Of a stretch of 64,000 nucleotides of DNA, positions 1-59,250 are shown piece by piece. Made by a program: the position numbers and the translations under genes. The stretch comes from Apteryx mantelli (Eukaryota > Chordata > Aves > Apterygiformes > Apterygidae). Under the pieces are notes generated by a model. That model made no database searches and was not told the DNA's origin. It was given only the letters and a program-made list of their open reading frames with translations. Each line of letters starts with the position of its first letter. Position 1 is the stretch's first letter. The stretch spans positions 87,538,007 through 87,602,006 of the forward strand of contig NC_089978.1 of the NCBI RefSeq assembly GCF_036417845.1. The letters are read 5' to 3'.

Positions 1-9929
<9,929 letters not shown>

Positions 9930-11783: not shown

Positions 11784-12313
11784 ATCAGGAAGAGGAAGTC
11801 GATGAGGCCTTCTACAGACAGCTGGAAGTAGCCTCACGATCCCAGGCCCTGGTTCTCATGGGGGACTTCAACCACCCCGATATCTGCTGGAAAGACAACA
11901 CAGCTAGGCTCAAACAGTCCCAGAGGTTCCTGCAGAGCATTGGTGACAGCTTCTTGACACAGGTGGTGGAGGAGCCAACAAGGAGAGGTGTGCTGCTGGA
12001 CCTCGTACTAACAAACAAAGAAGGACTGGTTGAAGATGTGAAGGTCGGGGGCAGCCTTGGCTGCAGTGACCATGAGATGGTGGAGTTCAGGATGCTGCGA
12101 GGAGGCAGCAGGGCACCAAGTAGGATCGCAACCCTGGACTTGAGGAGAGCAAACTTTGGCCTCTTCAGGGACCTACTTGGAGGAATCCCATGGGTTAGGG
12201 CCCTAGAAGGAAGGAGTGTTCAAGAGAGCTGGTTACTATTCAAACATCACTTCATGCAAGCTCAAGAGCGGTGCATCCCTATGAGTAGGAAGTCAAGCAA
12301 AGGAGGCAGGAGA
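11784..12313 (+). mobile_element. CR1 LINE, outer copy, left part
   Basis: 5'-truncated plus-strand CR1. It encodes the second half of the endonuclease ([14 protein letters not shown], later [10 protein letters not shown]) and the linker to ...[11 protein letters not shown]. It stops abruptly at about 12313, where an inverted CR1 3' end begins, and resumes at about 15374. The start is approximate. Confidence 0.93.
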
Positions 12314-12389
12314 CAGAATCACAGAATCGCTGAGGTTGGAAGGGACCTCTGGAGATCATCTAGTCCAACCCCCCTGCTCAAGCAGGGTC

Positions 12390-13318
12390 ACCTAGAGCAC
12401 ATTGCACAGGATTGCATCCAGACGCGTTTTGAATATCTCCAGAGAAGGAGACTCCACAACCTCTCTGGGCAACCTGTTCCAGTGCTCTGTCACCCTCACA
12501 GTGAAAAAGTTTTTCCTCATGTTCAGATGGAACTTCCTGTGTTTCAGTTTGTGCCCGTTGCCTCGCGTCCTGTCGCTCGGCACCACTGAAAAGAGTCTGG
12601 TCCCATCCTCTCGACACCCTCCCTTCAGATACTTGTACACATTGATAGGATCTCCTCTCAGCCTTCTCTTCTCCAAGCTAAACAGGCCCAGCTCTCTCAG
12701 TCTTTCCTCCTAAGAGAGATGCTCCAGTCCCCTAATCATCTTTGTAGCCCTTCGCTGGACTTGCTCCAGTAGTGCCACATCCCTCTTGTCCTGGGGAGCC
12801 CAGAACTGGACGCAGTACTCCAGATGGGGCCTCACCAGGGCTGAGTAGAGGGGGAGAATAACCTCCCTTGACCTGCTGGCAACACTCTTCCTGATGCACC
12901 CCAGGATACCATTGGCCTTCTTGGCCACAAGGGCACATTGCTGCCTCATGCTTAACTTGGTGTCCAGCGGCACTCCCAGGTCCTTCTCCGCAGAGCTGCT
13001 CTCCAGCAGGTCAACCCCCAACCTGTCCTGGTGCATGGGGTTATTCCTCCCCAGGTGCAGGACCCTGCACTTGCCTTTGTTGAACTTCAGGAGGTTCCTC
13101 TCTGCCCACCTCTCCAGCCTGTCCAAGTCTCTTTGAATGGCAGCACAGCCCTCTGGTGTATCAGCCACTCCTCCCAGTTTTGTATCGTCAGCAAACTTGC
13201 TGAGGGTGCACTCTGTCCCTTCATTCAGGTCATTGATGAAGAAGTTGAACAAGACTGGACCCAGTACTGACCCCTGGGAGACACCGCTAGCTACAGGCCT
13301 CCAGCTAGACTGCGCCAC
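12390..13318 (-). pseudogene. CR1 ORF2, inner copy, part 2 after frameshift
   Basis: Continues with [20 protein letters not shown] (a Ser replaces the usual Pro of GVPQGS), intact FADDTKLGG, and then ...RGLEHLS followed by an in-frame TAG where CR1 normally has a Tyr codon. The last block (MEKRRLRGD... to ILCNVL) is in the same frame after the stop. Confidence 0.9.
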
Positions 13319-28800: not shown

Positions 28801-31800
28801 GCCATACCATTTCAAAGCTCTCATTGCTTTCTTCTCTCCACCACCTTTATTTCAAAGAAAAGCAATTTGGTAGGACTCAGAAAAGAAAAAGCTACCCTTT
28901 TACTTACAATTCATCTGGTCTGTTGTTTGAAAATGTTCCAGTGGATATAAGCCCATAATTATCCGGTGACACTGCCAACACAATGGCCACAACTACTGCT
29001 GGTACCCCTAAAAGATTATGAGCAAACATGTAAGTGAAAATCATGACACAATGACAGTATTAAGATGACTTGAAACTACTGTATTTTTCTGTGAATTCTA
29101 CAACCAGTTTATGAACTTCTGTTGAATTCTGTTGATTATTAGCTGTCCAAAGAAATCTAAAAATTGGGGCATTCAAACTGTGCTCAGGAGAATAACTTGC
29201 AAAGAAACAAATGTTCTCCTCCACAGCTGGCTTTAAACCTTTCTGAAGAAGGCAACAAATATCATATGATTTAATCCAGTTATTTTACTTACAGCCTAAG
29301 GTAATCTACTCAGGTATGTGTATGGTAACAAAGACCTTAAAACACCAAACACAGTACATTGATTTTCTTCCCACTTACATCTGTTTAAAGAAACACAATT
29401 CTATTGATTTTAGTGCCTTCACTCATGTTTACTCAAGTGGGCTAGAGAGGAAAATCAGGTCCAGAATCTCTTCATTCTTTAACCAGTTAGGGGGGCTTTG
29501 CTGCTTTTTGGTAGAAACAGTGCTATTCCAGAAACAGAATATATATACGTGATGGCATTTATTTTCCAAACAGAACTGATGCCATCTGTCTGGAAGATGG
29601 AAATGAAAGTGAGCACATTCAAAATCAGCTCTATTACACTTGTCCAAGGAAAATTCTTCATCCATTTGCATCGCAGCAGCCTTTTTTCAGCTTGCAATCT
29701 GAAAAAATCTGCAGCTAGGGGGAAGTTGCATACCTCAGAAAATAGAATATACAGGACCAGATTTACTGATACTGAATATGTGGTCACTGACAGGTTATTG
29801 GCATTTAATGACTGCTTCATTTTCACTTTTAGTTAAGTGTCACATTCCCTGAAATATTTGGTAAAAGGATATATCTATTTAGCTTCAAAAAGTGAAAAAA
29901 AATACATACCCCAACCAACAATGCAAAATTTAAGGATGTATTTCCGTACATAGGTATTAAAGACTTTCACAAGGGCAAGATACATATGAAAAGCTTCTAG
30001 GCCCATCCAAGTGAAGGAAACCAACAGGAAATAATGAAGAAATACAGCAACTGCAATGCACAAGCCTCGTGTATCATACAAAGCAATCCATGAATCAAGG
30101 AGGAAAACTAGGTTGAGCAGAAGTAACGCAGCACACAGCTGAATAAGGATTTTGGAGGGGTAGTCTCTCCGGATTTTCCTAAAAAGCAAATTAGTGAGAT
30201 CACATCAATTGTCATTACTTTGGATCCCAGGCTGATTTTCTCTCTTGTAGTCCTTATTGCACGAATGACAATAAAATATTTATTTATATGTTTTTCATTC
30301 ATACATAATTCTTCGTATATTGCATTTATACAGAGAAGGTGAGTTATAAAGATTCACAAATTAAAGGTCTGTATGACACGTTTGTAATAATAAGATTTCC
30401 ATAAATACAAACAACACAGCTTGGACTCTTATATTTTAATTCAGTGATTTTTTTTACACTCTGTGTTAGGCTTCTCTGTGTTGGAATACTTCCAAAAACC
30501 AAAATGTGAGTGTTCTTTAATGCTAAACTAGATTAGGCACTCTACTGGGCATCCAACAGCCTTGACAGAAACAAGTAATTCTTTGATGACAGGATAATGA
30601 GAGAGTAATTGGGTGCCAAAAGCAACTTCTAGGAGGATTTACAAAACACAGTATGGAGGATCAAATAGCTAAGGCTCAATCAACTTAAGAAAATGTTCCG
30701 ACAAACAATCAAGAAAGTTAGTATGCCATAATTACATGTCATTTCACAAGACAAATACATGTAAAATGCTATCATTATGGACTGCACTGTGTATGCTGTA
30801 TCTTATCTTAAACACATCCTTCCACACTTTTGTTAAGATAGTATGTTGTAAAACACTTAAGAGTATTATTTCTTCACTTGTCACTGTACAGAACCTCATG
30901 ATTCATTCACTTGTCTACAAGATTAACGTTCCTGCAAGACGGAATCAACACCTTCCTAGTAAAGGGAACAAATTTGTGCATTCTTAACTGAGCCAGAATC
31001 AGTAACTACTGGAAAGGACACTGCAGCGAACATTACAAGCAATCACAAGCACAGAACAATGGGAGCTTAGTTCAACAAATACTTACTCAAAGGCTATGTA
31101 GGTCACAAGAGTAACAGAAAGAAAAATTGCAGAGAGGCCACAGCCTATATAGGATATAAAAGTCAGTACCAATTCTTGTGTGGGATTTAAAGGAGTATTT
31201 CCATACAAGTTCTAAAAGGGAAACAGAAGTTAAGTTCAAAGAGCATGCTTGTTAAAGGGAAAAAAGTCCCCACCAAAATGCGCTTTTTCCTCTGCAATTA
31301 AAAAATGAAACAGTTCTTTTCATCACAGATCTTATAAAAGGTGAAAAAAAAACTGAAAAAAAATCTAACTGTGAAGTGATGTTTGATTAAAATATTGTTT
31401 TAAATTTGATTTATCCTAATTTTTCTTTCCTACAGAAGAAAGACCGCCTAAATGTAAAAGCTGCAGTTTAGTAAAACACTTAACTGATTTGGACTTTAAT
31501 GGAACTCATGGCCCCAGTTCAACAAGCGGTTTAAGCATATGACTGATTTTATGCATGCATGTACTAACACTGAAATGAATGGAGCTAGTCAGGTATTTAA
31601 TAGTTGATACGTGCTTGCTAAATTCTCACTGTTTAAGATCACACATGCCTAAATGTTTTCTTGAATCAGGGTATCGCACAATTTTTTAAATAATTACCAT
31701 CAAAACTGCAAAGCTTGTGAGGTGGTTGCATGAGCAGACTGTTTCATTTGCTCTACTTTCTTTAACTATGCAGCCTTCATATGACCAGCCTCCATATCCA

Positions 31801-34800
31801 CCTGTTACAGAAAACAGCTTTGTTATTGACAACAGCATTTCTTTATACTAACATGAGCTAATATAGCTAAAAGAGCGTGATATTTTGGGTGATATATCAA
31901 GAACTTACCATTTCTATTAAAGTCCCAAAAAACACATCTAACTGTTGAATTATCCTGTTTGAGAGGTAAAGAAAAAAAGATGTTTTACTAAACTATGAGT
32001 TTATAATCAAGTAATTTATGAATTGAGTACCAAATGGAGACAAGAATAAATGCTGTTTTACACGAATTTAGATGCATAGAATGGATTAATATCTCAATAT
32101 GCATGTGAAAATATACAGAACAAATCTGAAGTGATCATACAGCAGATAGGTTGCATGCTGAGATTTTGTTCTTGGTAGAAACATTATGATGCTGATTCAT
32201 CATCATCTTTCAATGTACAAATTATTTGGATTTCTCATCCTTTCTGATTTTATAAGTATAAAGAAACTGACTATATTGAAAAGCAAAAAAACCTTTTAAT
32301 TTGCAAACATTTGGTCACTTTATCCTACTGTGCTGTTAAAGGTTTACATATGCATCTTCTTTCCACCAATGAAAATCCTATAAATTGTAGCAGTAATACA
32401 ATCTATTGCTATGAATACTAATAATTCTACAGTTATAGCTCAAAACTCAATATTATATCAATAGAAATAAAAACTACAATGAGCCAGCTCTAGAAAGAAG
32501 TTTCAGACACAGAAGTGGAATCACTACAGATTTCAGTTTGTAATATTTTAGTATTTAAAACTCTTTTTAAAGATCAGGGACAGGAAGATTTTAATCCCTG
32601 GTGCTCATTTATGAAAGAGACACTGTATATGAGCCCTAATACTTAATGATGACACAATCCTGTTTTCCAGTTTAAGGAACAACATTCGCCCTACAGAAAA
32701 AAGCTTTATATTGCTCTCTGGCCACACAGAACCTATAAGTATCGTGATTCCAGTATCTCCCTAACAAGCCCTACAGTCAACTTTCAACCCAGAGATACTA
32801 TTCTTTGGAGAAAAAAGAGAAAAAAACAGAAGGGCAGTTAGGGAGGATAAAAACTGGATGGTAAGTGAAAGAGCAAAATTAACTGAAATCATCTGAGAAC
32901 AAAAACTAATACCAACGATAAATATGCAAAGCTGAGTGATTTTGAAAGTCCAGATGGAGAGGAAATGTCCACAACAGTAGAGCAGCACCAACAAAACAAT
33001 CTGCATTCTTAGTATGGTATTTCTTCTACAACACCTCCAACTGAGACAACAAAATAACACTTTTAAGTCCACCAAAACATAAATCATACCTGATTGGGTT
33101 TGATATTCTGTAAAGTGACAGTAACATTTGCCTTTAAGTTGCTGAGTGTGAGGTTAGCAACACTTGATGATATAACATTGCTGATTAAAGATACATTCTT
33201 CAAGGAAGGATCCTGAAACAACAAATATATAACCAGACTTTAAAATATTAAAGGAAACAGTAGTGAAATAAAGCACACACAAGTTAAGCTATTATATGGT
33301 GTGAGAACTGGACAAAACCAGTATATTTTTAACAGGAAATTCTGAAATGTATTTTTTGGGGAAAAAAAATCCATTCGTATTTTATCTTGCTCTAGTCTGG
33401 AGTTTAAAACCATTATGAACAGACTACTGGAAAGATACCTGGAACACAGTGGTCTTTTTAAAAAAGTTGAATATAATTCTAGAAGCCAAGTCCAACTCCT
33501 CAGGAGGTAAATTTGTCAGCAATGATGAAGGAAGTGTAATTGATCCAAGATTATTTAAGTCATGAAGTGCTTCAGTACCTAGAGAGATCTGCAAAATAAG
33601 TACAAAGATTATGATTCATTTCTGTCACTGAAGAAAAATTAAACTATGCCTTATTTTAAGCTTAGAACTTTGAAATACATATTTGTGCCACTCTGATCAT
33701 TGCTAGGAACATACTGTTGATCTCTCATTCCTCTCTTGCTCAAAGGATTAAAAGCATCTGCAGGCCTGAAAATGATGCAGTTTATTTCAGGTCTGCCCAC
33801 CACTGAAAATACTTTGTCTTTATCCACTTGCTTACTGGGACAGAACATCACTGTTGTGGATAATATTGATTTGAAAAAGGTGAAGAGCAACAACCTAGGT
33901 AGATCTACATAATTGTGGAGGGAGATTAGCATTTCATAGGCTAGAAGTGTGCAAAGAACTTCTTATAACCCAGGTGAAGAAAGTATGTCATTTGTAGACG
34001 ATTTAGTAAGAAAATGAGGCTTTTACATTCATGGCACCTATCTACGTTTACGTTAAACCTTCCCTAAAGCTTTTTAATTCATTGGCTAATCTCAACCATG
34101 TTTGAAAATAAGAGAGAGAGATTGTAAAGATTTTTAAGCTCTGGTGGCCAAAGAGAAAAGAGAAACCCTACTTATGCCTGAGGGAAGCCTTAATCCTTCA
34201 CTGTTCTTTCTGCAACAGCTGTTCAATGTCTCACCCCATGTAGAGCTCCAAAATGGCCCCACAACGCCTCTTGCCCAACGAGGAGGCCATGCAAAAGTGG
34301 GCAGGACACGGGAGAAAAAGGTTATAGGGAGGAACTGAGGGTATTACTAAGGAAAGGAATACAGGGGACATGAAGGTAAACTGTCCCTGGGTGGCACTGG
34401 GAATACCCTATGGGGAACATGCTAGCTGACAGCACTACAGGGTAAACAAAGATGTCTACAATAAACATGAAGGACTAGGGTGACAAATACAGTGAAAGGC
34501 CATAGGAGTCATATGGGAGAACTGAAAGTCCTGAAGTACGAGAAGCAGGATTATTGTGCCAGTATAGGAACAAAGGACATATATGTAGGTATGCTCTGCA
34601 TTTCTTTACCATGCCATGAGACTTCCAGTAGATCATTACTTAGCAAATACCTCTTTTTCAGCACTATCACCTCCTAGAGTCACCTCAGACTCATGAATCA
34701 CATCTTACTTGGAACACAAAAAAGAACTCAAATGTTGTTATCATTTCACATCATTTTTAACATCATAGAATGATCCCAGTAGTACCTATGGTCTTATGGT

Positions 34801-43800: not shown

Positions 43801-46800
43801 TTATTCTTTTCCACAAAACTACTACTTCAATAGCTTCATTTTTTCAGTTTTGCTAGCTATCTCTAAATTCCATCTAATTTTTTTTCCAAAATAGAAGAGC
43901 TGCACTGTGCATGCTATTAATACAACTCCAACTTCTGTAATGAGAATAAAATGTTGGCTAAAGGCAAAGTGGTACTCTGAATATTATTCAGTCCCTTTGC
44001 TGATTAAAGCACTTTCAGGATACCATAATTCCCAGTATCATTCAGCAGTCCTTTAGAGCTGATAGGACACTTTGGTGGACATAAAAGAACTTCTATGACA
44101 TTTCTCTTCTTGCAGCCACACATTCAGTGTGAGCTTTAGAGAAGGACCCATGCAGGAATGCATACGTCATGTCACCCAAAACACATGGCACAGTTTACTG
44201 TGTCAACCATTAGGGAAACTTTATATTGGGAAGCAAATATTTATTCTGTCTCTTTCTAATCTATAAAGTACAGATTATCAGTATACAGCCACCTGGCAGA
44301 AATGACTTCATTTTCTGAAGTACTTCTCACAGGAGCCCTTTATCAAAGTATTTTGAAAGTCAGCAACATAAATCAACAAAATCTTTATCTACATTTTTGT
44401 TAACACACATATAGGGAACATCATTGCCCTTTCCATTTCCCTTTGTTTTTCTGTCCTGTCACATTATGCTTTTAAAATACATGCAGGTTTTTACAATAAT
44501 TCTTCCAAACTCTATTTCAACTTCCATTTCTGATACAGGATTAGGCTTAATATGGCAGAGACTAACAGCATACTAGCTTCTTTTTTCTCAGGTTAGTAAT
44601 TATTATCTGTAACCGTGTATCCTCTGATAAGAAATACTGATCAAGAACAGAGTTGACTGAACATTACTTCTAATACAAAACATGTTTAATTTAATTTTTA
44701 AGAAGCTATATACAGTCTCTCTGAATTAGCAAGAAAACTTACTACAGAGCTAGATTTTATACAGCAAATGCAAATTGCCACATTACTCAGAAGAGAAAAT
44801 AGTTGGACATAATTTTTACAAGAAGAAAGAAAAAAACTAACCTGAAAAATTACAGACAGTCGATATATTGCATAAAATGGTTTCTCCTGGCATAGTTTCT
44901 GGAAAAAAAAAAAATCCAGTGAGTAAAAATACTGAATTTAAAGTCAGTCCTGACAAACATACACATTTACAATCATTTCAGGGTTTTAAATTTAAAGGTC
45001 TTTACCTTTTAGAAATATTTTACATACTGTGTAGGCTTCACTTCTCTAGGGCACTTACCATGATATTATCTAAGAGCTAGTATTCAGACCGATACACACT
45101 GTTTTTGTTTAATTTTCTGTAACAGTTTCCGCAGAAGACCTACATGCAAGTAGTTTCTGCATTTAAAAATAATCCCATAATTTGGTGGAAAGCAAAGACA
45201 CAAACACATTAGAATACAGTTGTATCTAAGACAATATTTAACATACTTAAGTTGTCAATTTATAGATAGGACTGTGCTCTTGCAGGGCTGCACATCACCT
45301 TTCCAATAACCGTGCACTGTGTGGCACACACTTTTTCAAGGTCTGTATCAGCAACTAACTCGAATGAATAAAAGTAAGATAGTCAACTCCAGGACTCTCA
45401 TTGCAACTGTCCAGGCACAAGAAAGACCTGATGAAAAGGGATCTTTGTCTAGGTTATCAAAAAGAAGTTGACATTTTTAAAATAATCAAGTCAATAAACT
45501 CTTCATATATAATCAAGATAACACAGAAATCAGTGTATCGCGAACAGGCTCTTTAAATATCACGGTATTCAAATCCTTATGTGATACATCATCTGTTTCT
45601 GAGGATCCTATTACGGCTACTTATGATAGTATGAAAACTAGAAACTATTCTGCCTGATAGAATTGAAACCATGGTGATAAGAAACGGATTCTCTCACCTA
45701 GCATACCATGCTTTAGTTAAAACAAACCTTTTGCTACTGCCATATGTTTAACCCTACCTATACAGCAAAGAAAAATACTGATCTCAAATTTAGGGTATTG
45801 TAAACAGATGGCTCAGCTGTAATTTTATTCAGTTAGTAAAGGACATGAAAGATGTTTGCATCTGAGACAAAACTCCTGCACTTTCTCATAAAAACAGATG
45901 TGGCAGCATACATTTCCTTACAACACTTAAGCAAATTCCTCAGTTATAATGAGGACCAAGGAAATAGTGCAAAATAAGCACGTATTTTGGTACGATAATT
46001 TCGATCATCCTCCATTAACAGAAAAACAAGTCCTGTCCTCTCAGCTGTGATCATTCGCTAGTACCAAATGAGATGGGAAATTTTTCTTTTCTTTTTTTAC
46101 TTTTTCTGTGGTACAAACATTTGCCTGTTACAGCCTGATATACTTCATCTGTTTCATCATCATCAATGGCAAGGATTTTGAGCTGCTGGCAACATTCAAA
46201 AAATTAGGAAAAAAATTTTTTTTTGAGAGCAATTTTGATTCAAATGAACTTGCCTTCCCTTTCATGTTGGTAGCTGTCAGTGAAGTAGCAATGAAATTTT
46301 ATCAATGCTATTATTTTAAGAAAAAACAATCTTTGAAGAAATAAAAGGTTCTTCAATAACTGAATTTTTGAAATTATTAGCTAGATGAAGAACAACAACA
46401 TTTATAAAATCCCAACGTACAAAATAGGTCAGAAAAGTAAAGAATAAGGTCAACCTTGTATTTACAGAGAACTTGTATGTGTGCCACCTCGTCCTGCCCA
46501 GGACCTCTGCATGCCACCACAATGCACATAATAAATAAGCAGTGTGGAGGATCAAAGCCTCACCAAAAGTCATTAATGATTTCAACCTCCAAGGATCACC
46601 AGGTAACATAGCCACAATCTTCTTGCAGGTCACATTTCACATAGTCAAATTACACTAGCCAGTATGGCTCCAAGCCATCCACCACTTATGCTAATTCTAT
46701 GTAAATATATTCTAGTCAGTCTACTAGGCTCCTACATGGATAATAAAATACTAAACTCAGCCTAGTCCTATAGACTGGATCTGCACAGAGAACATCAGAT

Positions 46801-49800
46801 TCAGATTCAGTCCTCTTCAATCTGTTTAAAAGCATGAGGAATTTTTTTTAAGTAAATACAGTTCCTGGGACTGCGTTTCTTAGATCTTTGTGCCCCCTGA
46901 CAATCTGCTGCTCTGATTCACAAAATACTCCAACCTTTCTATATGTGATATGTAGGTAAGCATTGCAGAACTAGACCTTCTACTGGACTGGAGACCAATG
47001 CAAAGTAAGGCAGACTGCTAATATGACAAACAATAGTACCAAGAAAAAAATCCGATTAAAAATATTTGAGTGCAGACCTCTTGAACTCACAAAGACACTT
47101 AAATTTTGAAAAGCTTTAGAGAATATCAGTAGTGATATATAAATCCTACATGGTATTATGGCGGAATAATAATCAGTGATATTAAGGGTGTCTGTAAAAA
47201 AAATGTTTTAAAATTAAGTATTTACATTTTAATTTAAAAAGCCTATGAAATACAAGTCATAAAAAGAAGTTTCCTTATTTACAGTTTAGACTCCGTCTTT
47301 CCAGAAGAAGTGTAAACACATGACCATTTATTTTATAAGGTGATTAAGTTACTTTCTGCACATGAAAATAAAAGCAGCATTTTGGGGGGTTCACCTGATA
47401 AAATCATTACATCCCCATCTGAGCCAGTTACTCAAGGCTCCCTATTATTCACTGGAGAAAGAAGTGCTTTTAAGGTGTGATTCATTTAACCTATTTTAGA
47501 TGGGTACTTTAGGATAAGACGAATCCCATCCTAAAAATGTCTCTCTCTCCATCAACTATGAAGGCTAGCAGGATGTCTAGCTCAGATGAAGACACAGGCA
47601 TCTATAGTTACATGGGATGAATATACTCCAAATGCAAACATCAGGAAGAAAGGTGTAGCAATTCTCCTGACTGGTCTCTACTGACCCTATTTGGCCAACA
47701 TATCAAAAGCACATATATTATGTCAGTGTTTTTAAGCAATGATGTGTACATTTTAGTTCTGTAAAATACTTTAAATAGCATCAGAAAGTTTAGAAAGCAT
47801 TCTCTCTATAGCTATACCCCAAAACAAAAAACAAACAAACAAAAAATACCCCAAGCCAACATATTGCTAAAAATAAATGTCCGGTCTGGGCTTGGACAAG
47901 CAATTTAATATTTTGGCTAAAAAGGAAAGGTTAACAGCTCAGTGTTAGTTTAATGCACTTCAAAACTCTACCAATGCAGACTTAAAATATAGACTGTAAG
48001 CTTTTTAAAATAGTGTAAGAAAAGAATTTGGGCTAAATGAACCCCAGTTTAAAAAGCAAACTTTCATGAATGCAACACAGATCTTCCTCCAGATCTCATT
48101 CACCTTATGTGAATTCTCACCTGTAGTTTGTGCAGTTTCTTCTGAAGACATATCTGAAGGAGAAAATTAATAACAGTAAAAACAAAAATAACAAAATCTA
48201 AACAATCTAACACTAACTAAATCTAAATAGGAGAAATGTTAATAAAATCTTGCCTGTAGGACTAATAGGATAGGTGATAAAAGTAACAATAGAGGATTCT
48301 GGAAAAAAAAGAGAAAAGAAGTAGCAATGGCATTAATGTAATTCTTTATTTCTATGAATTTCTGAGAAGGAAGATCAAGCATGCAACACTTTCAACAGGA
48401 ACAGAATTTTAATGCTCTAAGTCCCCTTTTATGAGCACTTCGGTGCTCAGTAAGAACTGTGTCCATTGTTTCAAAAATCTGAACAAGTATCTGAATACAA
48501 ACAGCCGGTAATTGAGCTCTTTCAGGTAAGTTCCTTTTATTGGTTTCATTCTCTTGGAAGACACAGATGACTGGCTCATCCAATAGCGGTAACTGCTCAG
48601 CTCCAAGGCCCTTTTTCTGCATATACCCATGATACTCCTGACCAAAGATGACATACTGAGCTTGGCAAACGGTGCTTCCAAAATCTTATTTTTGCCAGAA
48701 ATTATATATAAATAAAATAGAACGAGGATGCAAGTATTTTTTTAGCCACACAAGAAAAAAAAATTACATTAAGAAAGCAGAAGAAAAAGACTGCTCAGGA
48801 AGGATGTGCTTAGTTAGCACATTTTAAGTGACCACACAGGAATATAAAGCCGTTAGAGGACAATGTCACTCCAATATGACACCTCAGTGACTTTTTTAAA
48901 GGGGGCAAAGCAGTTTCATAACAGAATAACATTACGCTTTCCAAATTTCTTTAATAAAAGCATCAGTGTCATCATTTGTAGCAATATCTCAAATATAATA
49001 AAAAATAGTTGGTTACTCTGCAAAGAGAGAGTTGCACACCAAAACAAAGCAATGTACTTCATGATACAGAACAGGTAGGGGAGCTTTTCTTTCAGCTATA
49101 TTTATTCCCATTAGACTAGCCATTTTAAACATTTTCAAAAGTTCCCTCTTTATTTTGTACTTGGAGTAAGAGCTAAGCATATTTGTTTCTTCAGTAACAA
49201 TCCTGAAGACAATTGATTTTCTAAGGCAATTAATAAATGGCCAAAAGGAATCAGAGGGAAAACTAAATGCTGGCTTCATCTGTATCACTTTGTTTGGTAT
49301 AAACAACTACAAATAATGAATTGGCTGCAATTGTTAATGATGATACATTCTCAGAGAAAGATTGTATCTGTAAAAAAAAGTGTATCTGTGTGCCTGTATG
49401 ATTTTTTTTTCTAGAGTATAGTGTGTCAGCATATATTAAGAAAGCAAGCAAATGGTTCTTTCTGTGTGTATATTTCCTCTATTTTTTCACAAATTTTTCT
49501 ACAAAAAATGCTTTCATAGACGATGTTCATCACCTTTGGTCCCACAAGTTATTAGAGTCCCCTTCTTGTTTTTGTTGTCTCTGAAGTGTACCACACTGCA
49601 TCAAATGACAGAGGTGTGTGTACTGGGGTGGAAAGAGGTGGAAAGGAGTTCTCTCCCTACAGTGTTCTCCCTCTGCCCTCTCTGCAAACTATTCACTGTT
49701 TAGGTTACAAAAGGCTCTTGATCAAGCAGCTTGCACTTATTTCATCCCCAACCGACACTACCACAAACTGGGAGTGATCCCATATGCCATGCTAATCCAT

Positions 49801-52800
49801 TAAAGGTAGCATGAAGAATTCAGTTCTTCAATTCTCCTCATTACTTCAGATAAAAACAGAAAAAGATTTTTCTAATACGAAATAATGGGCATTGCAGCAA
49901 TCAGTAAAGCCCTGGTTTTCTTACCAGCAATGGTTGTTGCAGTTAATGCTCCTGAATTTACAGCATTTGTTTCAGAGAGAGAGAGAGAGAGAAAAAAAAA
50001 GGGGGGGGAGGGGGAGGACACAGATTAGTACATGAAGTTTCAGTTACAGATATAACCATCCTCATCAGCCTTTCCCTGTATTATCGGAAGTTAACTGGAT
50101 GCATTCACCAGAAGAGGGCAACACCTGCTCATCAGAAAAACACTTCCAGGTTGAAAAAAAGGTGGACATACTAATCTCTGCTGAAATAACATTAAAATTG
50201 TTATGAATTCAAATAGAATTTAGCCAAAAATTATTTCTTTTCAACAAATATGGGACAATTTGCATTGTACAATGTTAAGGAAACAAAATCCATAGTCCCA
50301 AGATACATGTCAGACTAGCCTGAACTCCACATGCCTATCATGAGCGTCTTGCTAATGGTGGGAATGGGAATTAAACATTTATGACAAGATGATTGTAGCT
50401 GGGTAGGAAGAACCCTTCTCACATCTTGTATTAATAACACTGGGACTTGCCATTTAAAAATTATTTCATACATGTCCATTCTCTTCTCTATCCAGCAAAA
50501 AGTAGCATTACAAAAAGCTAATTCATTTCAAGTTTGAATCTCTGCTCTTGATAGGAGCCAGCCAACTATTTATATAGCAAACACTAGCCACTAAACCTTT
50601 GATCTTGTTACAGCAAGCATTTTGATCAAAAAGAAATTAGAAAGTTTGATATCTGGTCTACACAGCAATTTTAAAGTTAGCCCTTTAATTTACTGAGTGG
50701 TTTATGACAGTGCCTTAGAAAAGTAAAATCACAGTTATCACAGAAATACAGTATCAAGAACAAATCACAGCAAATACAGACACACAGACACTTTTTTTTT
50801 AAAACACAACAATTTCAGATGTGCTGCTATGCTAGCAAAATAACATTTTGTGCTGTCAAAAGTTTTGTTTTTGTGAAATAAATTGTTTGCATTGAACTTC
50901 AAGTCTTTTACACTAGAACTGAAGAAATGAATTCTAGTTTGTGCAAACACGGTTGTACTGGATAGGCTAGTCTTTCATCTACCTTCAGTGGGTGCGACTA
51001 ACACTACTGATTTTATTTTTATAAATCCGTTCTTACCTGTAGGTCTGGTAGTGTCTTCTGTATCTGACAAGGGAAGAAAAACAGTAAAAATTAGATGATA
51101 AATGTAAGAACAGAGAATTTTGTAACAGAAAAAAAAACAAAATTAAATGAAACAAGAACAACGCTCTCCTCAAAAAACCCAAAAACTTAAAAAAGAAAAA
51201 TATGACAAAAGAAACCCAAAGTAGTCAAAACAAAGCAGAAGACAACTCGCGTATTCATTTTTCCTGAGAATTCCCCGGCTTTCAGTTTAGGACTTGGTCT
51301 TTATAAGCCAGAACCCCATATTAAGAGCCCAAAAGAAGTGAATATAAGGAAGAAAGTCCAGAAGCAAGAGATTTCACCTATCTGCAATGCTATTAACTCA
51401 CCTGGAGCACCTCCTAGTCAATGAAGCCTTCCTTAATCATTCCTACCTATTTTGGGAGGACTGGAAGTAACCCTCCTTTTTCCCAGTCTGACCCCAACTT
51501 TTGACTGAGACGCCACCAGCTTTCTTCATACCTGTTAAAGGAACCAGTGAGATGCGATTTTCCCTTCCAAGCAGAGATCAGAATCCCTATCTGACTTTTC
51601 TCCTTCATTCCTCAGGGATCTTTCCCTCAATCTACATCTGCTTTACCTGTAAACAGTTACTAACGAAATCAGAAGAGAATATTCTTACTTAGTTGAGCAG
51701 GTCTTTGAGCCACAGTTAGAAAATAAAAATCCCTCAACCCACTCCTGCTACTCTGTCGGAAGATAAAAAAATTCCCCGCTAAAAACGAAGTGCCCAGAAC
51801 AACGTCACCATGACAGATCACGAGGCCAGTTTGCTCTCAGCTGGCTTAGCTCTACCCTAGAGCAGCCTCTGAAGATGGCAGTGTCTAAGCGGCAGAGAAA
51901 GAAGAAAGTGAAAATACCATTTTCTAGTTCATTCCTGCCTCAGAGACACCCTCTCCTCACATACAGGAACTTGCTAACTTTCTGCCTGTCAGTTAAACAA
52001 ACCCTCAATTCAAGCTTGTTTGCAGAACTACTGTGCATCCTTTGAGAAATGTGTGTTGCATCTTTTTGAAAAGCTAGAAGATGAACTCTGTTGAGCTCAA
52101 TTTGTTCTTCAGTTTATCACTTTTGGACTTACAGAAGACCCATATTAGTCTGCGAGCTTTCGCACTGCCCTTCCATTGCCAATGTCTCCAGAAATCCTTT
52201 CAGAACAGTTGCTTGATTGAAAATGAACAACTACACTAAATAGCAGCAAACACAAATGTAACAGGAACTCATTATTGTGCTTCCACATAGCTATTTTTGC
52301 TCAAATGTGGAAAAAAGATGCAGTTGAATCATTCATTTGTATACGGGAAATAAAATGAAATGTTATTAATTAAGAGAAAAGCTGGGGAGGACAGGAGAGG
52401 TGTGAAAGAAAAGGACATTTTATTCCACAGATATTCACAAAGTACATATAACAATTACAAAGTAAACCAACATTAATACAAAGAGGTAAAAAAGGCAGAC
52501 AAGATAGCAAACAGTTCCTACATCTGGAATATGAAGGAAAAGTAATTTAGGGTAAAATTAAAATGTAGAAAAAGAAGAATATACAAAGATGACCATACAC
52601 TTGTTAGACTTGCCCTGGGCAGCACGCAAAGTTCTGGCTAAAAATGGGAATTAGCAGTATATGAATTTAATATTCAACAAATCAATACTGAAAGTTTTTT
52701 AGTTTAACAACTTTTGTTCTGCTTATACCTGAATTACTATTTACAACATAGCAACAACACCACAAGAACAGTGCCATTAACTTTGTTTCATCAGCTTTCA

Positions 52801-53623
52801 ATATGATTCCTCCAACCAGTGTCAAATGCATATTTATATATGTATAAATACAGTAAGGTATAGTGTTTTGCATTCATTGATAGATACTGTCATGTTGTGT
52901 ATCTAGCTTTATGCTCAAGGACTCACAAGGCACAGGAAGACTGCCTAAACACCATTTAAATCTGAGTTTGTACTGAGGCTACAAATAAGAATATCTACCA
53001 CACTCATTCATTTCCACAGTATTACTGTCTGTTCTGTAAGAAGTTAATTTACACAACCACTCTTCCTTGGCCTAACACCTTTCACTTATTACAAGTATGG
53101 GTGGATAACAGCCAGGAATCCAAATGCTAAAGGATTTGATGTTATTTCTACTCTCAGTTACAAGCTATCTGTTTCCTCTGTCCTGTGAGGATCAATGCTC
53201 CAAGTTCATTTAAATGCTTTTAAAATTCCCATCCATTTTTCTCTTATGTGAAAAATTCCAGTGCAACTATGGAGTCTCTAAGTAGCTGTGCAAACATTGA
53301 TGTCCTTGACCACAGACGCTAGGCACAATGAAAAATTGAAGAAAAAAAAGGAACAAGGGAAAAAGGAAGCATAACAATTCAGCCTTGGTATAAAGCACAC
53401 CCACCCAAAATAAAGTGTGTTTCTATCAAGTTTGAATTTGGTCCTATTTCTATAGTCTGCCTGTAACAACAATAATTCTAACCTGTAGTGCTTGCAGTTT
53501 GTTGTGAAGTTGTATCCGAAAAAGAAATGTTAACAAAAAGCTAACTAATGTACAAGTAATGCAGAAATAAAATCTTGCCTGACACAGTATTGGAGCAGGT
53601 AACAAAAGTAACAATAAATGATT
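19688..53623 (-). CDS. ADGRG2: ADGRG2 (GPR64/HE6), 26 coding exons, 5' end missing
   Basis: Adhesion G-protein-coupled receptor G2, a plasma-membrane receptor known in mammals from epididymal efferent ducts. Twenty-six exons join in consistent phase into about 1,100 codons ending at TGA 19688-19690. Order: small stalk exons; a cysteine-bearing segment (CNISTVC...[10 protein letters not shown]); a 239-codon Ser/Thr/Pro mucin exon; GAIN domain with GPS site [11 protein letters not shown], cleavage expected between Leu and Thr; seven TM helices; a Ser-rich tail. TM regions match human ADGRG2 almost residue for residue ([40 protein letters not shown]). The TM3 Cys (GLCIA) and ECL2 Cys (CWIKSR) for the conserved disulfide are present. 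Oddities: loss of Trp-Gly-Pro after TM6, a triplicated exon module, a long mucin exon. Signal-peptide exon(s) were not found. PHKA2 follows downstream, as in human. Confidence 0.95.
19873..24979 (-). other. ADGRG2: ADGRG2 last intron
   Basis: 5.1 kb between the two tail exons. AT-rich; I recognised no exon, RNA gene or clear mobile element. Confidence 0.7.
24980..25132 (-). CDS. ADGRG2: ADGRG2 tail exon (Ser/Asn-rich)
   Basis: 153 nt: (D)[20 protein letters not shown]...[20 protein letters not shown]...ANGN. Matches the human tail segment [20 protein letters not shown]. Acceptor CCGTAG|ACTGG, donor GGCAATG|GTATGT. Confidence 0.95.
25884..25985 (-). CDS. ADGRG2: ADGRG2 exon: end of TM7 and start of tail
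   Basis: 102 nt: (G)[18 protein letters not shown], then [15 protein letters not shown]. Covers the cytoplasmic half of TM7 and the amphipathic Cys-Cys segment after it. Acceptor TTTGCAG|GGTTC, donor AACTCTG|GTAATT. Confidence 0.96.
26784..26837. repeat. AAATA/AAATT simple repeat
   Basis: About 54 bp of A/T-only pentamer-like units, AAAATAAAATAAAATTAAAT and variants. Confidence 0.85.
27230..27900. repeat. Possible ancient amniote interspersed repeat
   Basis: Less AT-rich than its surroundings, with motifs such as GAGATACGGGTTCAATCCCT and repeated 'gtgcct' words (AGGTGCCTGAGG, TAGGTGCCTACA, GCGTGCCTAAGG), which remind me of an old sauropsid interspersed repeat. I cannot name the family or fix the ends. 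Confidence 0.3.
28101..28195. repeat. TA-rich low-complexity sequence
   Basis: About 95 bp nearly pure A/T with TATATTA-type units. Confidence 0.8.
28341..28615 (-). CDS. ADGRG2: ADGRG2 exon: ECL2 Cys, TM5, TM6, ECL3, start of TM7
   Basis: 275 nt. Starts [17 protein letters not shown] (ECL2 Cys-Trp, TM5), then the basic loop [22 protein letters not shown]6 [15 protein letters not shown] with the conserved GITWGF Trp, then [17 protein letters not shown]. Human has FFAWGPVNVTFMYLF here; this gene reads [12 protein letters not shown], three residues shorter. Acceptor TGTTCTAG|CTGCTGG, donor TTGCAAG|GTAAGT. Confidence 0.96.
28908..29007 (-). CDS. ADGRG2: ADGRG2 exon: TM4 and ECL2
   Basis: 100 nt: (G)[19 protein letters not shown], then [13 protein letters not shown](F). 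Matches human VPAVVVTIILTISPDNYGL; the glycine-rich human loop (GSYGKFPNGSPDDF) is replaced by [13 protein letters not shown]. Acceptor CTTTTAG|GGGTACC, donor GAATT|GTAAGTA. Confidence 0.95.
29008..29909 (-). other. ADGRG2: ADGRG2 intron within TM4
   Basis: 0.9 kb; nothing recognised. Confidence 0.75.
29910..30178 (-). CDS. ADGRG2: ADGRG2 exon: TM2, TM3, start of TM4
   Basis: 269 nt: [20 protein letters not shown] (TM2), then [20 protein letters not shown] (ECL1 and TM3, with the disulfide Cys), [20 protein letters not shown], and [11 protein letters not shown]. Nearly identical to human. Acceptor TTTTTAG|GAAAATC, donor GGTTGGG|GTATGT. Confidence 0.97.
30179..31086 (-). other. ADGRG2: ADGRG2 intron between TM1 and TM2 exons
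   Basis: 0.9 kb; nothing recognised. Confidence 0.75.
31087..31211 (-). CDS. ADGRG2: ADGRG2 exon: TM1
   Basis: 125 nt: [20 protein letters not shown], then [20 protein letters not shown] and F(E). Matches human [22 protein letters not shown]. The linker before TM1 differs from human (DLSRTSVLPAQMM). Acceptor CCTTTTAG|AACTTG, donor TTTGA|GTAAGT. Confidence 0.96.
31212..31697 (-). other. ADGRG2: ADGRG2 intron between GPS and TM1 exons
   Basis: 0.49 kb. About 31500-31680 reads like a diverged old interspersed repeat (CCCAGTTCAACAAGCGG, TTTAAGCATATGACTG, GAAATGAATGGAGC), similar in wording to a widespread sauropsid repeat. Identification is weak. Confidence 0.5.
31698..31801 (-). CDS. ADGRG2: ADGRG2 exon: GPS cleavage site and tethered agonist
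   Basis: 104 nt: (G)[20 protein letters not shown], then [14 protein letters not shown]. Contains the GPS cysteines, the two tryptophan-linked positions shared with the previous exon (CVFWD...GGW), and the His-Leu/Thr cleavage triad. The peptide exposed by cleavage, TSFAVLM, is closer to the canonical adhesion-GPCR agonist than human TSFGVLL. Acceptor TGTAACAG|GTGGAT, donor TTGATG|GTAATT. Confidence 0.97.
31909..31954 (-). CDS. ADGRG2: ADGRG2 exon: GAIN/GPS start
   Basis: 46 nt: [15 protein letters not shown] plus one base of Gly. Matches human [15 protein letters not shown]. Acceptor TCAAACAG|GATAAT, donor AGAAATG|GTAAGT. Confidence 0.96.
31955..33089 (-). other. ADGRG2: ADGRG2 intron in the GAIN region
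   Basis: 1.1 kb; nothing recognised. Confidence 0.7.
33090..33212 (-). CDS. ADGRG2: ADGRG2 exon: GAIN domain
   Basis: 123 nt, 41 codons: [20 protein letters not shown], then [20 protein letters not shown] and Q. Matches human [22 protein letters not shown]. Acceptor GTTTCAG|GATCC, donor AATCAG|GTATGA. Confidence 0.96.
33439..33588 (-). CDS. ADGRG2: ADGRG2 exon: GAIN domain
   Basis: 150 nt, 50 codons: [20 protein letters not shown], then [20 protein letters not shown] and [10 protein letters not shown]. Matches human SIGTITLPSSLMNNLPAHDMEL and RVQFNFFETPALFQ. Acceptor TTTGCAG|ATCTCT, donor TTCCAG|GTATCT. Confidence 0.95.
33589..35463 (-). other. ADGRG2: ADGRG2 intron in the GAIN region
   Basis: 1.9 kb; no exon or named repeat recognised. 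Confidence 0.7.
35464..35620 (-). CDS. ADGRG2: ADGRG2 exon: GAIN domain
   Basis: 157 nt: [20 protein letters not shown], then [20 protein letters not shown] and [12 protein letters not shown]. Matches human LLKVVDDIGLQLNF and [13 protein letters not shown]. Acceptor after an unbroken T tract, TTTTTTTCAG|AATAAT; donor CTCCAG|GTAAAG. Confidence 0.96.
35820..35882. repeat. TA-rich imperfect repeat
   Basis: ACTTATATACTTATATAGT and GTATAACATAGTTGTATAAC units in an ADGRG2 intron. Confidence 0.7.
36000..36198 (-). CDS. ADGRG2: ADGRG2 exon: stalk/GAIN subdomain A start
   Basis: 199 nt: [20 protein letters not shown], then [40 protein letters not shown] and PRISN. Corresponds to human LENQVLQMEKALSLGSLEPN...MINQVSRLLHSPPDML. 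Acceptor TGTCACAG|GAAAGA, donor TCTAACAG|GTAGGC. Confidence 0.92.
36199..37003 (-). other. ADGRG2: ADGRG2 intron 3' of the mucin exon
   Basis: 0.8 kb; nothing recognised. Confidence 0.75.
37004..37722 (-). CDS. ADGRG2: ADGRG2 mucin-like stalk exon
   Basis: 719 nt, 239 codons, very rich in Ser, Thr and Pro: [20 protein letters not shown] at the start, [18 protein letters not shown] at the end. It is an open frame across the whole exon, with acceptor TTTTTTTACAG|TACTAT and donor AGCTCAG|GTAAAT. Phases fit both neighbours (TA|T and G|GA). The human equivalent is a Ser/Pro/Thr segment that I recall as roughly 125 residues, so this one is about twice as long. Dense O-glycosylation is inferred. 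Confidence 0.93.
38196..38256 (-). CDS. ADGRG2: ADGRG2 stalk exon: Cys cluster
   Basis: 61 nt: (D)[19 protein letters not shown](Y). Aligns with human HCCCSVRIPCPSSPEELEKL. Acceptor TCATCTCAG|ATCAGT, donor AAAGTA|GTGAGT. Confidence 0.92.
38922..39004 (-). CDS. ADGRG2: ADGRG2 stalk exon
   Basis: 83 nt: (S)[19 protein letters not shown], then DKTEISQI plus G. Aligns with human STLNCTFTIKLNNTMNACAV. Acceptor TCATTACAG|CATACA, donor CAAATTG|GTAAGT. Confidence 0.9.
39005..40273 (-). other. ADGRG2: ADGRG2 stalk intron
   Basis: 1.3 kb; nothing recognised. Confidence 0.65.
40274..40308 (-). CDS. ADGRG2: ADGRG2 stalk micro-exon
   Basis: 35 nt: [11 protein letters not shown] plus AG. Corresponds to human TYFIMCATAEAQ(S), with the Cys aligned. 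Acceptor TGTCATTACAG|TCCTCT; the donor CCAGAG|GTTTGT is weak. Phase fits both neighbours exactly, which is the main support. Confidence 0.8.
40440..40479 (-). CDS. ADGRG2: ADGRG2 stalk micro-exon with two possible donors
   Basis: 40 nt: (K)[13 protein letters not shown]. Matches human SELNKTLQTLSE. Acceptor TTTTAAAG|AATTTC. Two good donors lie 9 nt apart in frame: GAG|GTAAGA (exon ends 40440) and CAAGAA|GTAAGT (exon ends 40449), giving products with or without Val-Ser-Glu. Confidence 0.88.
40480..41649 (-). other. ADGRG2: ADGRG2 stalk intron
   Basis: 1.2 kb; nothing recognised. Confidence 0.65.
41650..41723 (-). CDS. ADGRG2: ADGRG2 stalk exon
   Basis: 74 nt: [20 protein letters not shown], then LEEV plus AA. 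Corresponds to human TNGTLTGVLSLSELKR. Acceptor ATCTAACAG|ATTAAT (minus strand), donor GAAGTGAA|GTGAGT. Contains an N-glycosylation sequon (NIT). Confidence 0.87.
41724..43550 (-). other. ADGRG2: ADGRG2 stalk intron
   Basis: 1.8 kb. Near 42190-42250 there is wording like an old CR1/L2-type 3' end (AAGGTCCCTCTTAGGCCAGC, ATTCTTATGTTCTTCTG), too diverged to call firmly. No exon recognised. Confidence 0.6.
43551..43621 (-). CDS. ADGRG2: ADGRG2 stalk exon
   Basis: 71 nt: (V)[19 protein letters not shown], then NVEI. Corresponds to human FFRGEIMFQYDKESTVPQNQ. Acceptor GGTTTTAG|TGTTCT, donor GAAATA|GTAAGT. Confidence 0.87.
43622..44841 (-). other. ADGRG2: ADGRG2 stalk intron
   Basis: 1.2 kb; nothing recognised. 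Confidence 0.65.
44842..44898 (-). CDS. ADGRG2: ADGRG2 stalk exon (CNxSxxC)
   Basis: 57 nt: (E)[18 protein letters not shown] plus G. Aligns with human PQRNICNLSSICNDS. Acceptor TTTTTTCCAG|AAACTA, donor TTTTTCAG|GTTAGT. It is the first of a run of phase 1-1 exons going 5'. Confidence 0.9.
44899..48120 (-). other. ADGRG2: ADGRG2 stalk intron
   Basis: 3.2 kb; nothing recognised. Confidence 0.6.
48121..48153 (-). CDS. ADGRG2: ADGRG2 stalk exon B, module copy 1
   Basis: 33 nt, phase 1-1: (D)[10 protein letters not shown] plus G. Acceptor TCTCCTTCAG|ATATGT, donor ACTACAG|GTGAGA. Clearly related to the B sequences at 51037 and 53483: AT...ACTACAG framework. Intron to exon A1 is only 100 nt. Confidence 0.8.
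48254..48298 (-). CDS. ADGRG2: ADGRG2 stalk exon A, module copy 1 (GC donor)
   Basis: 45 nt, phase 1-1: (E)[14 protein letters not shown] plus G. Acceptor TTTTTTCCAG|AATCCT. The donor is CTACAG|GCAAGA, a GC-AG type site matching the known GC-donor context AG|GCAAG. The same donor sequence is found in copy 3. Fits the frame of its neighbours. Confidence 0.75.
48299..49924 (-). other. ADGRG2: ADGRG2 stalk intron
   Basis: 1.6 kb; nothing recognised apart from short poly-A/poly-T runs. Confidence 0.6.
49925..49951 (-). CDS. ADGRG2: ADGRG2 candidate stalk micro-exon
   Basis: 27 nt, phase 1-1: (G)ALTATTIA plus G. Acceptor TAAATTCAG|GAGCAT lies downstream of a long CT/T/C polypyrimidine tract; donor ATTGCTG|GTAAGA. 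The Thr/Ala content suits a mucin-like stalk. No homologue is known to me; called from splice signals and phase only. Confidence 0.5.
49952..51036 (-). other. ADGRG2: ADGRG2 stalk intron
   Basis: 1.1 kb; nothing else recognised. Confidence 0.6.
49974..50017. repeat. (GA)n / poly-A / poly-G tract
   Basis: AG repeats followed by A9 and G-rich sequence. On the minus strand it forms the polypyrimidine tract in front of the candidate exon at 49925-49951. Confidence 0.85.
51037..51063 (-). CDS. ADGRG2: ADGRG2 stalk exon B, module copy 2
   Basis: 27 nt, phase 1-1: (D)TEDTTRPT plus G. Acceptor CCTTGTCAG|ATACAG, donor CCTACAG|GTAAGA. Paralogous to B1 and B3, but six bases shorter. Confidence 0.7.
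51090..51119 (-). pseudogene. Relic of stalk exon A, module copy 2
   Basis: Reads AATTCTCTGTTCTTACATTT... on the minus strand. It matches exon A1 (AATCCTCTATTGTTACTTTT...) at about 20 of the first 24 positions, at the expected place just 5' of B2. The acceptor position has lost its AG (ACAA) and no donor remains, so it should not be spliced in. Confidence 0.65.
51120..53482 (-). other. ADGRG2: ADGRG2 stalk intron between module copies 2 and 3
   Basis: 2.4 kb; no other exon recognised. Confidence 0.6.
53483..53515 (-). pseudogene. Stalk exon B, module copy 3, acceptor lost
   Basis: 33 nt that would read (D)[10 protein letters not shown] plus G, with donor ACTACAG|GTTAGA retained. The acceptor reads TTTCTTTTTCGG instead of ...CAG, so the exon should be skipped. 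It is the same length and framework as B1. Confidence 0.7.
53579..53623 (-). CDS. ADGRG2: ADGRG2 stalk exon A, module copy 3 (GC donor)
   Basis: 45 nt, phase 1-1: (E)[14 protein letters not shown] plus G. Acceptor TACTGCATCAG|AATCAT; donor GTGTCAG|GCAAGA, again a GC donor. Most 5' exon of ADGRG2 that I can support; it joins in frame to B2 (G|AT = Asp). Confidence 0.7.
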
Positions 53624-58270: not shown

Positions 58271-58550
58271 TCGTCCAGGAGCTATTAGACACAGGATACA
58301 GAAAAAGACCTTAAAATGCACATGATGTACAATGACCTACCTCCAACAGGAAGAATGAAAAGCACTCTTTTCTTCTCTCTACCTCCAGTCTAACTTAAGA
58401 GATCTAAGTGATTTGGGGAGGAACAAATATGAGAAAATAGAGCCATGCCTTGTGCCTGATCAGCACAGCCTGTCTTAGCTTCTTACTAAATTCCTTTCTA
58501 ACTATTTTCCTGGGCAAGTGAATCCTGTGTGCATGCATGGAGATCTAAGT

Positions 58551-59250
58551 GTCAGCAACTGGAGTGAGACCATGGGTCATAGGGGCCCATGTATCAGTGG
58601 TGCCAGCAACTGGAGAGAGTGAGGATCTAAGTGCCAGCAACTGGAGTGAGACAACTAGAGTGGGACCACAGGTCAGAAGGCCCGTGTGTCTGTGGTGCCA
58701 GGAACTGGAGCAAGCGAGGGTATGCAAGTGAATGTGCAATCACTAGCGAACATCAAGCCCCACTAGCAGATGAGTAAGTGAATTGACCTGGGAGCCAGAT
58801 ATGCGTGTGTCTCCAAGGGTGAAATCACAGGGGCAATGGGCTACAGCCAACCGCCAGAGGGACAGTAGGGTCCAGGCAGGTCAATAGGGAGACCCACTTG
58901 TGTGTGTCTGTGCATCTGACGGTAAGACCACAGGGGAATTGCCTACCGGAGAGACAAGGGGAGTCCTGGCTGACTGCCAGAGAGACCACAGGGTCTGGGC
59001 ATCAACCTAGAGCTGTTTGAGCATGTCTGGTGTGTGCGTGTGTGTCTAAGGGTGAGACACATGGAAGAGTGAGGGTTCAGGACCAGCTACTGGGTGGACT
59101 ACAGGTCCAAGGCCAGGTACTAGATAGAGCCAGCATGTGCACGTAAGTGTATGTGTGCATGCGTGAGTGTGGGGGACTGTACCAGCAACTGGAGTGGGGC
59201 TGCAGGCCACAAGGGTTCGTATGCCCAGATGCCAGCAACCTGGGAGACCA
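58551..59250. repeat. Degenerate minisatellite-like block
   Basis: Repeated copies of GTGCCAGCAACTGGAGTGAG and GACCACAGG(T/G), with GTGTGTCTG-rich spacers: AGCAACTGGAG or close variants near 58555, 58607, 58635, 58703 and 59185. Units are unequal. GC- and TG-richer than the flanks. Confidence 0.65.

What the first reader, a model, noticed from the sequence alone, without database searches (positions are those of the whole stretch)
48121..53623. Triplicated two-exon module in the ADGRG2 stalk with complementary decay
Seen: exon A (45 nt, ESxIVTF...) and exon B (27-33 nt, AT...ACTACAG) occur as a short-intron pair at 48.12-48.30, 51.04-51.12 and 53.48-53.62 kb. Copy 1 has both exons. Copy 2 keeps B while A is a relic without splice sites. 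Copy 3 keeps A while B has lost its acceptor. Inference: tandem duplication followed by reciprocal loss. A3 spliced to B2 across about 2.5 kb restores one full in-frame module (G|AT = Asp), so two modules remain from three copies.
Basis: partly seen in the sequence, partly recalled or inferred. Interest (0 to 1): 0.8.

Follow-up and report, generated by a model that had tools for sequence, protein, structure and literature searches.

The report
Triplicated mini-exon pair in bird ADGRG2
A bird gene for the receptor ADGRG2 carries three old copies of a pair of tiny optional exons, two of whose six exons are broken; it looks like the bird counterpart of a stretch already known to be variably spliced in humans, an ordinary but tidy case of exon duplication and decay.

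Summary
On the minus strand a 45-nt exon A and a 27-33-nt exon B occur as a pair three times. A1/A3 and B1/B3 are alike beyond chance (E 2e-6, 3e-5); B2 is found by a profile of B1+B3 (E 3e-4); relic A2 matches A1 in exact register better than any of the other stretches tested (1688 in all). A2 lost acceptor, frame and donor; B3 has GG for AG. No further copy was detected within 100 kb upstream (a relic like A2 could be missed). The pair lies between the signal-peptide exon (8.5 kb outside the window) and the NICNLSS-type exon, and most resembles human exons 5-6 in the published variably spliced region 38-101 (PMC8834492). A3 has the weakest sites of the intact exons tabulated. No transcripts or other birds were available. 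A new member of a known kind.

The parts
53579..53623 (-). exon A3 (45 nt, phase 1-1, [15 protein letters not shown]); weak AG acceptor, GC donor
53483..53515 (-). exon B3 (33 nt), dead: acceptor GG instead of AG; frame open ([11 protein letters not shown])
51092..51119 (-). relic of exon A2: acceptor AA instead of AG, in-frame TAA at the end of the core, 3' half and donor gone
51037..51063 (-). exon B2 (27 nt, DTEDTTRPT), strong acceptor and donor
48254..48298 (-). exon A1 (45 nt, [15 protein letters not shown]), strong acceptor, GC donor
48121..48153 (-). exon B1 (33 nt, [11 protein letters not shown]), strong acceptor and donor
44842..44898 (-). next downstream conserved exon (57 nt, [19 protein letters not shown]), counterpart of the human NICNLSSICNDS exon
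   Evidence: weak match to the recalled human protein (E 5.6, 0.066 in the narrower); strong splice sites
49925..49951 (-). possible further phase 1-1 mini-exon C (27 nt, GALTATTIA) between B2 and A1; weak acceptor, strong donor
31698..31802 (-). GPS motif exon that, with the 7TM exons, identifies the gene as an adhesion GPCR

Best explanation
The bird ADGRG2 gene carries three tandem copies of an old two-mini-exon unit (A 45 nt, B 27-33 nt), most likely the counterpart of human exons 5-6, between the signal-peptide exon and the first conserved ectodomain exon (shown: order, phase, size, similarity among copies; inferred: orthology). Each exon is phase 1-1, so each can be included or skipped without harming the frame (shown for seven combinations). 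I infer that A1, B1 and B2 are spliced into at least some transcripts and that A3, if used, is a weakly included cassette, while A2 and B3 are dead. The effect would be to set the length and Ser/Thr content of a flexible N-terminal stretch in front of the ectodomain, as alternative splicing of residues 38-101 does in humans (inferred). Loss of A2 and B3 is ordinary decay of redundant copies, not shown to be driven by complementation. This overlaps with the second rival below, which differs only over A3.
For: Gene identity: 7tm_2 E 1.4e-18 and 2.8e-16, GPS E 9.9e-15. Copies related. In a search for short phase-1 exons on the minus strand of 44.8-64 kb, B1, the NICNLSS-type exon, B2 and A1 are the top four of 42; scores of 16 or more occur 4 times there, 0 times on the plus strand, and on average 1.17 times (at most 4) in 30 simulations. 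The signal-peptide exon at 72544-72661 in window numbering, first of 17 candidates, ends in phase 1 and scores 68 against the recalled human N-terminus; the best of 2000 shuffles is 48. A3 against human exon 5 in exon-end register p 0.002; A3+B2 p 0.043. The human region is published as variably spliced, with isoforms lacking 51-66 or 52-75 (PMC8834492). All 7 tested exon paths into the next exon are open and in frame.
Against: No transcript evidence. Similarity to human exon 5 is weak: A1 in register gives p 0.052 and scores better against human residues 76-87 (p 0.018); in free alignment A1 0.58, A3 0.11, B1 0.16, B2 0.68, A1+B1 0.71. Six register tests were made, so the 0.002 is about 0.013 after correction, and six free alignments, so the 0.043 does not survive correction. 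Mismatches between A1 and A3 are spread evenly over codon positions (4, 5, 5 of 15 each), so no protein-level constraint is seen. A3 has the lowest acceptor score of the intact exons tabulated (2.3 against 4.5-12.5), though the twelve receptor-exon sites in that table were picked as the best-scoring near the homology edges. The human protein is recalled, though its numbering agrees with the paper.
Confidence: 0.7

Rival explanations
1. Reciprocal, selected loss: the duplicated modules shared out their parts, so that A3 and B2 together are kept because they rebuild one module.
For: A3 keeps its frame and a donor stretch identical to A1's; A3+B2 gives 24 aa like human 52-75 and aligns better than A1+B1; B2 has strong sites.
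Against: The pattern is expected in 6 of 15 random two-loss patterns; frame is kept by all seven combinations tried; human A and B are not obligate partners (PMC8834492); A3 has weak sites.
Confidence: 0.12
2. Only copy 1 (A1-B1) and perhaps B2 are used; A3 is a decaying exon like B3 and A2, and the array is mostly fossil.
For: A3 sum of splice scores 7.5, against 9.9-21.4 for the 16 other intact exons tabulated (the twelve receptor-exon sites were chosen as best-scoring); A3 is 39th of 42 candidates; even codon-position spread.
Against: A3 frame is open; its last 3 exon and first 13 intron bases match A1 exactly; weak sites are common in cassette exons (general knowledge).
Confidence: 0.35
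3. The three stretches are copies of a dispersed repeat that happen to carry splice-like ends, not duplicated exons.
For: Short (54-62 nt) matches in AT-rich introns.
Against: The two profiles find no further copy in 164 kb at E below 0.9 (the A profile also ranks A2 no better than chance, so relics could be missed). Each DNA query finds only itself in the 1.5-Gb genome, but this search also missed the sister copy, so it excludes only close copies. Matches start and stop near exon edges; B1, B2 and A1 rank among the top four short exons.
Confidence: 0.04
4. Copy 3 is read as one fused exon, the 63-nt A3-B3 intron being retained in frame because 63 is a multiple of three and B3 lacks an acceptor.
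For: Intron length 63 nt; B3 donor scores 6.9.
Against: The unspliced reading meets an in-frame TAG.
Confidence: 0.01

Closest known systems
Human ADGRG2/GPR64 exons 5-6 and the 'variable region' (residues 38-101), PMC8834492 (passages and figure legend)
   Same: Same gene, same place before the NICNLSS exon, small in-frame exons, phase 1 junction (derived by me from the paper's primer and deleted 9-mer), similar lengths (16+8 aa against 15+9 or 15+11), VVSF/IVTF core.
   Different: Human shows one such adjacent pair; here there are three copies with two dead exons, and both A exons have GC donors. Splicing here is unproven.
Tandem exon duplications in general (PMC9013439, abstract and passages; Exonize, PMC12343006, passages)
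   Same: Neighbouring homologous exons within one gene; Exonize explicitly covers degenerate exons, PMC9013439 unannotated copies in introns.
   Different: The unit here is two very short exons (27-45 nt), so ordinary similarity cut-offs would probably miss it (my inference).
CSN1S1/CSN1S2 casein genes (PMC12470106, passages)
   Same: Extensive exon duplication and skipping with many small coding exons.
   Different: Unrelated gene; secreted milk proteins, not a receptor ectodomain.

Membership tests
ADGRG2 (adhesion GPCR) | 7tm_2 core and GPS motif, exon-by-exon match to human ADGRG2 | tested here: met
   (recalled human protein)
Tandem exon duplication with degenerate copies | homologous exons repeated within one gene beyond chance | tested here: met
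Tandem exon duplication with degenerate copies | same phase and frame in each intact copy | tested here: met
Tandem exon duplication with degenerate copies | expression of at least one duplicate | not testable with these tools
   no RNA data
Orthologue of human ADGRG2 exons 5-6 | lies between signal-peptide exon and NICNLSS exon | tested here: met
   (the NICNLSS-type match is weak, E 0.066)
Orthologue of human ADGRG2 exons 5-6 | sequence similarity in exon register | tested here: inconclusive
   A3 p 0.002, A1 p 0.052; A3+B2 p 0.043, A1+B1 p 0.71; human sequence recalled
Orthologue of human ADGRG2 exons 5-6 | alternatively spliced | not testable with these tools
   human shown in PMC8834492; bird unknown
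Mutually exclusive exons | exactly one duplicate per transcript | not testable with these tools
   frame does not enforce it: A3-B2-A1-B1 stays open
Subfunctionalised (complementary) exon loss | complementary pattern rarer than chance | tested here: not met
   6 of 15 random patterns

The most novel reading that the evidence does not exclude
The ADGRG2 variable region is a birth-and-death array of optional mini-exon pairs that has persisted since the common ancestor of birds and mammals, in which A exons are kept facultative by GC donors, and in this bird the unit matching human exons 5-6 is a composite of halves from two different copies (A3 with B2).
Probability: 0.13. Interest if true: 0.55.

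Novelty: new member of a known kind. Interest (0 to 1): 0.32.

Why it matters
Very short exons easily escape annotation and similarity searches. If used, this array would mean that birds and mammals vary the same stretch of a fertility-related receptor by different numbers of optional mini-exons, and it gives an example of how such exons die, both dead copies here showing a changed acceptor AG. It does not change how the receptor is thought to work.

Tried and rejected
Human residues 88-101 as the source of A: no register match (p 0.36 for A1, 0.61 for A3). Duplication of the surrounding introns: flanks of 200, 400 and 1000 nt of copies 1 and 3 are not clearly alike (upstream of A 0.33, 0.65 and 0.21 of random pairs score as high; downstream of B 0.055, 0.028 and 0.17), so the size of the duplicated unit is unknown. 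Mini-exon C as a relative of A or B: not significant (best p 0.054 with B1, five comparisons). More A/B copies up to 164 kb: none detected. Retained-intron reading of copy 3: stop codon. Genome-wide DNA search for copies: found only the query itself and missed the sister copy, a weak negative. I did not search the virus, phage, plasmid or prokaryote collections for this exon pair, and the tool states that the genome has no relatives here.

Literature (seven searches; rows listed of papers found): 'ADGRG2 / splice variants / exon' 19 of 19; 'GPR64 / HE6 / alternative splicing / N-terminal', at least 3 terms, 20 of 39; 'ADGRG2 / chicken / avian', at least 2, 20 of 41,645; 'exon duplication / tandem / complementary loss / reciprocal loss / alternative splicing', at least 4, 1 of 1; 'tandem exon duplication / degenerate / relic / alternative splicing', at least 3, 12 of 60; 'GC-AG introns / alternative splicing / exon duplication', at least 2, 8 of 278; 'ADGRG2 / exon duplication / bird / microexon', at least 2, 10 of 182. 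None of the titles or abstract starts listed named this array; the unlisted papers were not seen. Passages were seen of PMC6667449, PMC8834492, PMC11039983, PMC12343006, PMC12470106 and PMC9013439, and abstract with outline of PMC9013439 and PMC7242645. No paper was read whole. Splice-site weights are recalled approximate vertebrate frequencies, so the scores rank but do not calibrate.

Full report
What the gene is. The window holds an ADGRG2 gene on the minus strand. A recalled human protein matches exon by exon from 36 kb down to 19.7 kb, with much weaker matches at 38.2, 40.4 and 44.9 kb (E 0.03-0.07 in the narrower). Exons at 31.7, 30.0 and 28.5 kb hit GPS and 7tm_2 in Pfam. The window lies in a 1.5-Gb assembly, contig C1 87538007-87602006. 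No species is named.

The three pairs exist. Along the transcript the order is A3 (53579-53623), B3 (53483-53515), relic A2 (core 51092-51119), B2 (51037-51063), A1 (48254-48298), B1 (48121-48153). Self-BLAST of 44.0-64.0 kb gives A1/A3 79% over 62 nt (E 2.3e-6) and B1/B3 78% over 54 nt (E 2.7e-5); copy 2 matches copy 1 in the same order at E 0.04 and 0.14. A profile built from B1 and B3 alone finds B2 with 16.9 bits (E 3.3e-4), against a best of 10.7 in 3.2 Mb of simulated sequence. The A profile gives A2 only 4.2 bits (E 3.7), fourth in the window and below the best simulated score of 12.6, so that test alone does not show A2. A direct comparison does: 28 ungapped bases with 5 mismatches to A1, starting at the first base of the exon, in the only one of 1688 stretches to score 33 or more (stretches overlapping A1 and A3 left out). 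A3 against the same place is not significant (22 of 1680 as high, other register). B2 against B1, with its first two and last four letters fixed, gives p 0.002; against B3 p 0.076. Over the first 28 bases A1 differs from A2 by 5 and from A3 by 5, and A2 from A3 by 10.

How the dead exons look. A2 has AA where A1 and A3 have AG, then an in-frame TAA, and it lacks the 3' half and donor (sequence printed). Its start lies 56 nt before B2, against 145 and 108 nt in copies 1 and 3 (from the coordinates). B3 has GG where AG is needed but an open frame and a GT donor. The single B3 change could be a polymorphism or an assembly error; this was not testable.

How good the live exons are. In a search for phase-1 exons of 18-129 nt between 44.8 and 64 kb, the first four of 42 candidates are B1, the NICNLSS-type exon, B2 and A1; A3 is 39th. 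Scores of 16 or more occur 4 times on the minus strand of this stretch, 0 times on the plus strand, and 1.17 times on average (at most 4) in 30 simulations; 20 or more occur 3, 0 and 0.07 times (at most 1). A3's acceptor (2.3) is below all 16 other intact exons tabulated (4.5-12.5), and its sum (7.5) is below the next lowest (9.9). Twelve of those exons had their sites picked as best-scoring near the homology edges, which flatters them. Splice weights are recalled approximations. Both A exons have GC donors, which are about 0.8% of splice sites in protein-coding genes and go with weaker sites and alternative splicing (PMC7242645, abstract). The last 3 exon and first 13 intron bases are identical in the two and occur together only there in the window.

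Where the pair sits. I fetched 100 kb beyond the window. A signal-peptide exon, first of 17 candidates, lies at window-frame 72544-72661 (L002 8544-8661). It ends in phase 1 and scores 68 against the recalled human N-terminus, where 2000 shuffles reach 48 at most. The next conserved exon downstream of the array is 44842-44898, counterpart of human NICNLSSICNDS. The profiles detect no other A or B copy between 1 and 164 kb at E below 0.9, though a relic like A2 would be missed by the A profile. Between the signal exon and A3 no mini-exon reaches 16; the best (15.7, GNSPVVLPSDAQTHT at 58898-58942, near a tandem repeat) and a few others cannot be ruled out, since known exons of this gene score as low as 9.9.

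Relation to human. PMC8834492 (passages and figure legend) calls residues 38-101 of human GPR64 the variable region, with isoforms lacking 65-67, 51-66, 52-75 or 88-101. The primer and the deleted GTACTCCAG given there place the exon 5/6 junction in phase 1 after residue 67 (my derivation; recalled residue names fit). Human exon 5 (residues 52-67, 16 aa) and exon 6 (68-75, 8 aa) thus resemble A (15 aa) and B (9 or 11 aa) in order, phase and size. Sequence support is modest. With exon ends in register A3 against exon 5 gives p 0.002 and A1 p 0.052; A1 does better against residues 76-87 (p 0.018); residues 88-101 give nothing. In free alignment A3+B2 gives p 0.043, A1+B1 0.71, A1 0.58, A3 0.11, B1 0.16 and B2 0.68. 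None of these is corrected for the twelve tests.

The complementary-decay idea. The two lost exons do belong to different copies and types, but 6 of the 15 ways to lose two of six exons do so. Seven exon paths into the 44.9-kb exon, from none of the array to A3-B2-C-A1-B1, are open and in frame, so frame restoration is no argument for A3-B2. The human isoforms show that B can be used without A. I keep the duplication and the losses, and set aside selection for complementarity (0.12).

Age and constraint. A1/A3 differ at 14 of 45 and B1/B3 at 8 of 33 sites, 0.40 and 0.29 substitutions per site. Mismatches are even over codon positions in A (4, 5, 5 of 15) and 4, 2, 2 of 11 in B, so there is no sign of protein-level constraint. 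Introns around the exons are no longer clearly alike, which fits an old duplication with exons changing more slowly, or a very small duplicated unit. At a recalled 2e-9 per site per year the split is about 70-100 million years old or older, so other bird orders should share it; this was not testable here.

Verdict. A real, old, tandem duplication of two tiny, probably optional exons with partial decay, in a region already known to be variably spliced in humans. Tandem exon duplications are common (about 10% of animal genes in the 2002 study quoted by PMC9013439; [quoted passage not shown] New member of a known kind.

Noticed in passing
window 49925-49951 (-): Possible 27-nt phase-1 exon GALTATTIA with a strong donor and weak acceptor; a long CT tract just upstream ends in TG at the point where a 48-nt open version would begin.
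   Followed up: partly
window 47150-47191 (-): Possible 42-nt phase-1 exon [14 protein letters not shown] between B1 and the 44.9-kb exon.
   Followed up: no
window 47195-47268 and 62836-62911 (-): 73.7% similar stretches, E 9e-5; scores higher than all 244 tiled 74-mers of 44.9-54 kb against 54-64 kb. Perhaps an unnamed dispersed repeat.
   Followed up: partly
L002 8544-8661 (-), window frame 72544-72661: Signal-peptide exon of the same gene, outside the window.
   Followed up: yes
window 58898-58942 (-): Exon-like 45-nt phase-1 stretch GNSPVVLPSDAQTHT (score 15.7), near a tandem pair of about 90-nt units at 58542-58719.
   Followed up: no
window 36990-37775 (-): 262-codon Ser/Thr/Pro-rich open stretch without a Pfam match, with a 33-nt tandem repeat at 37437-37499; looks like a mucin-like ectodomain exon.
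   Followed up: no
window 11780-13321: Two opposed pieces of retroelement: endonuclease on + (11780-12586) and reverse transcriptase on - (12713-13321).
   Followed up: no
window 9319-10400: C-rich minisatellite-like array next to long open frames on both strands.
   Followed up: no
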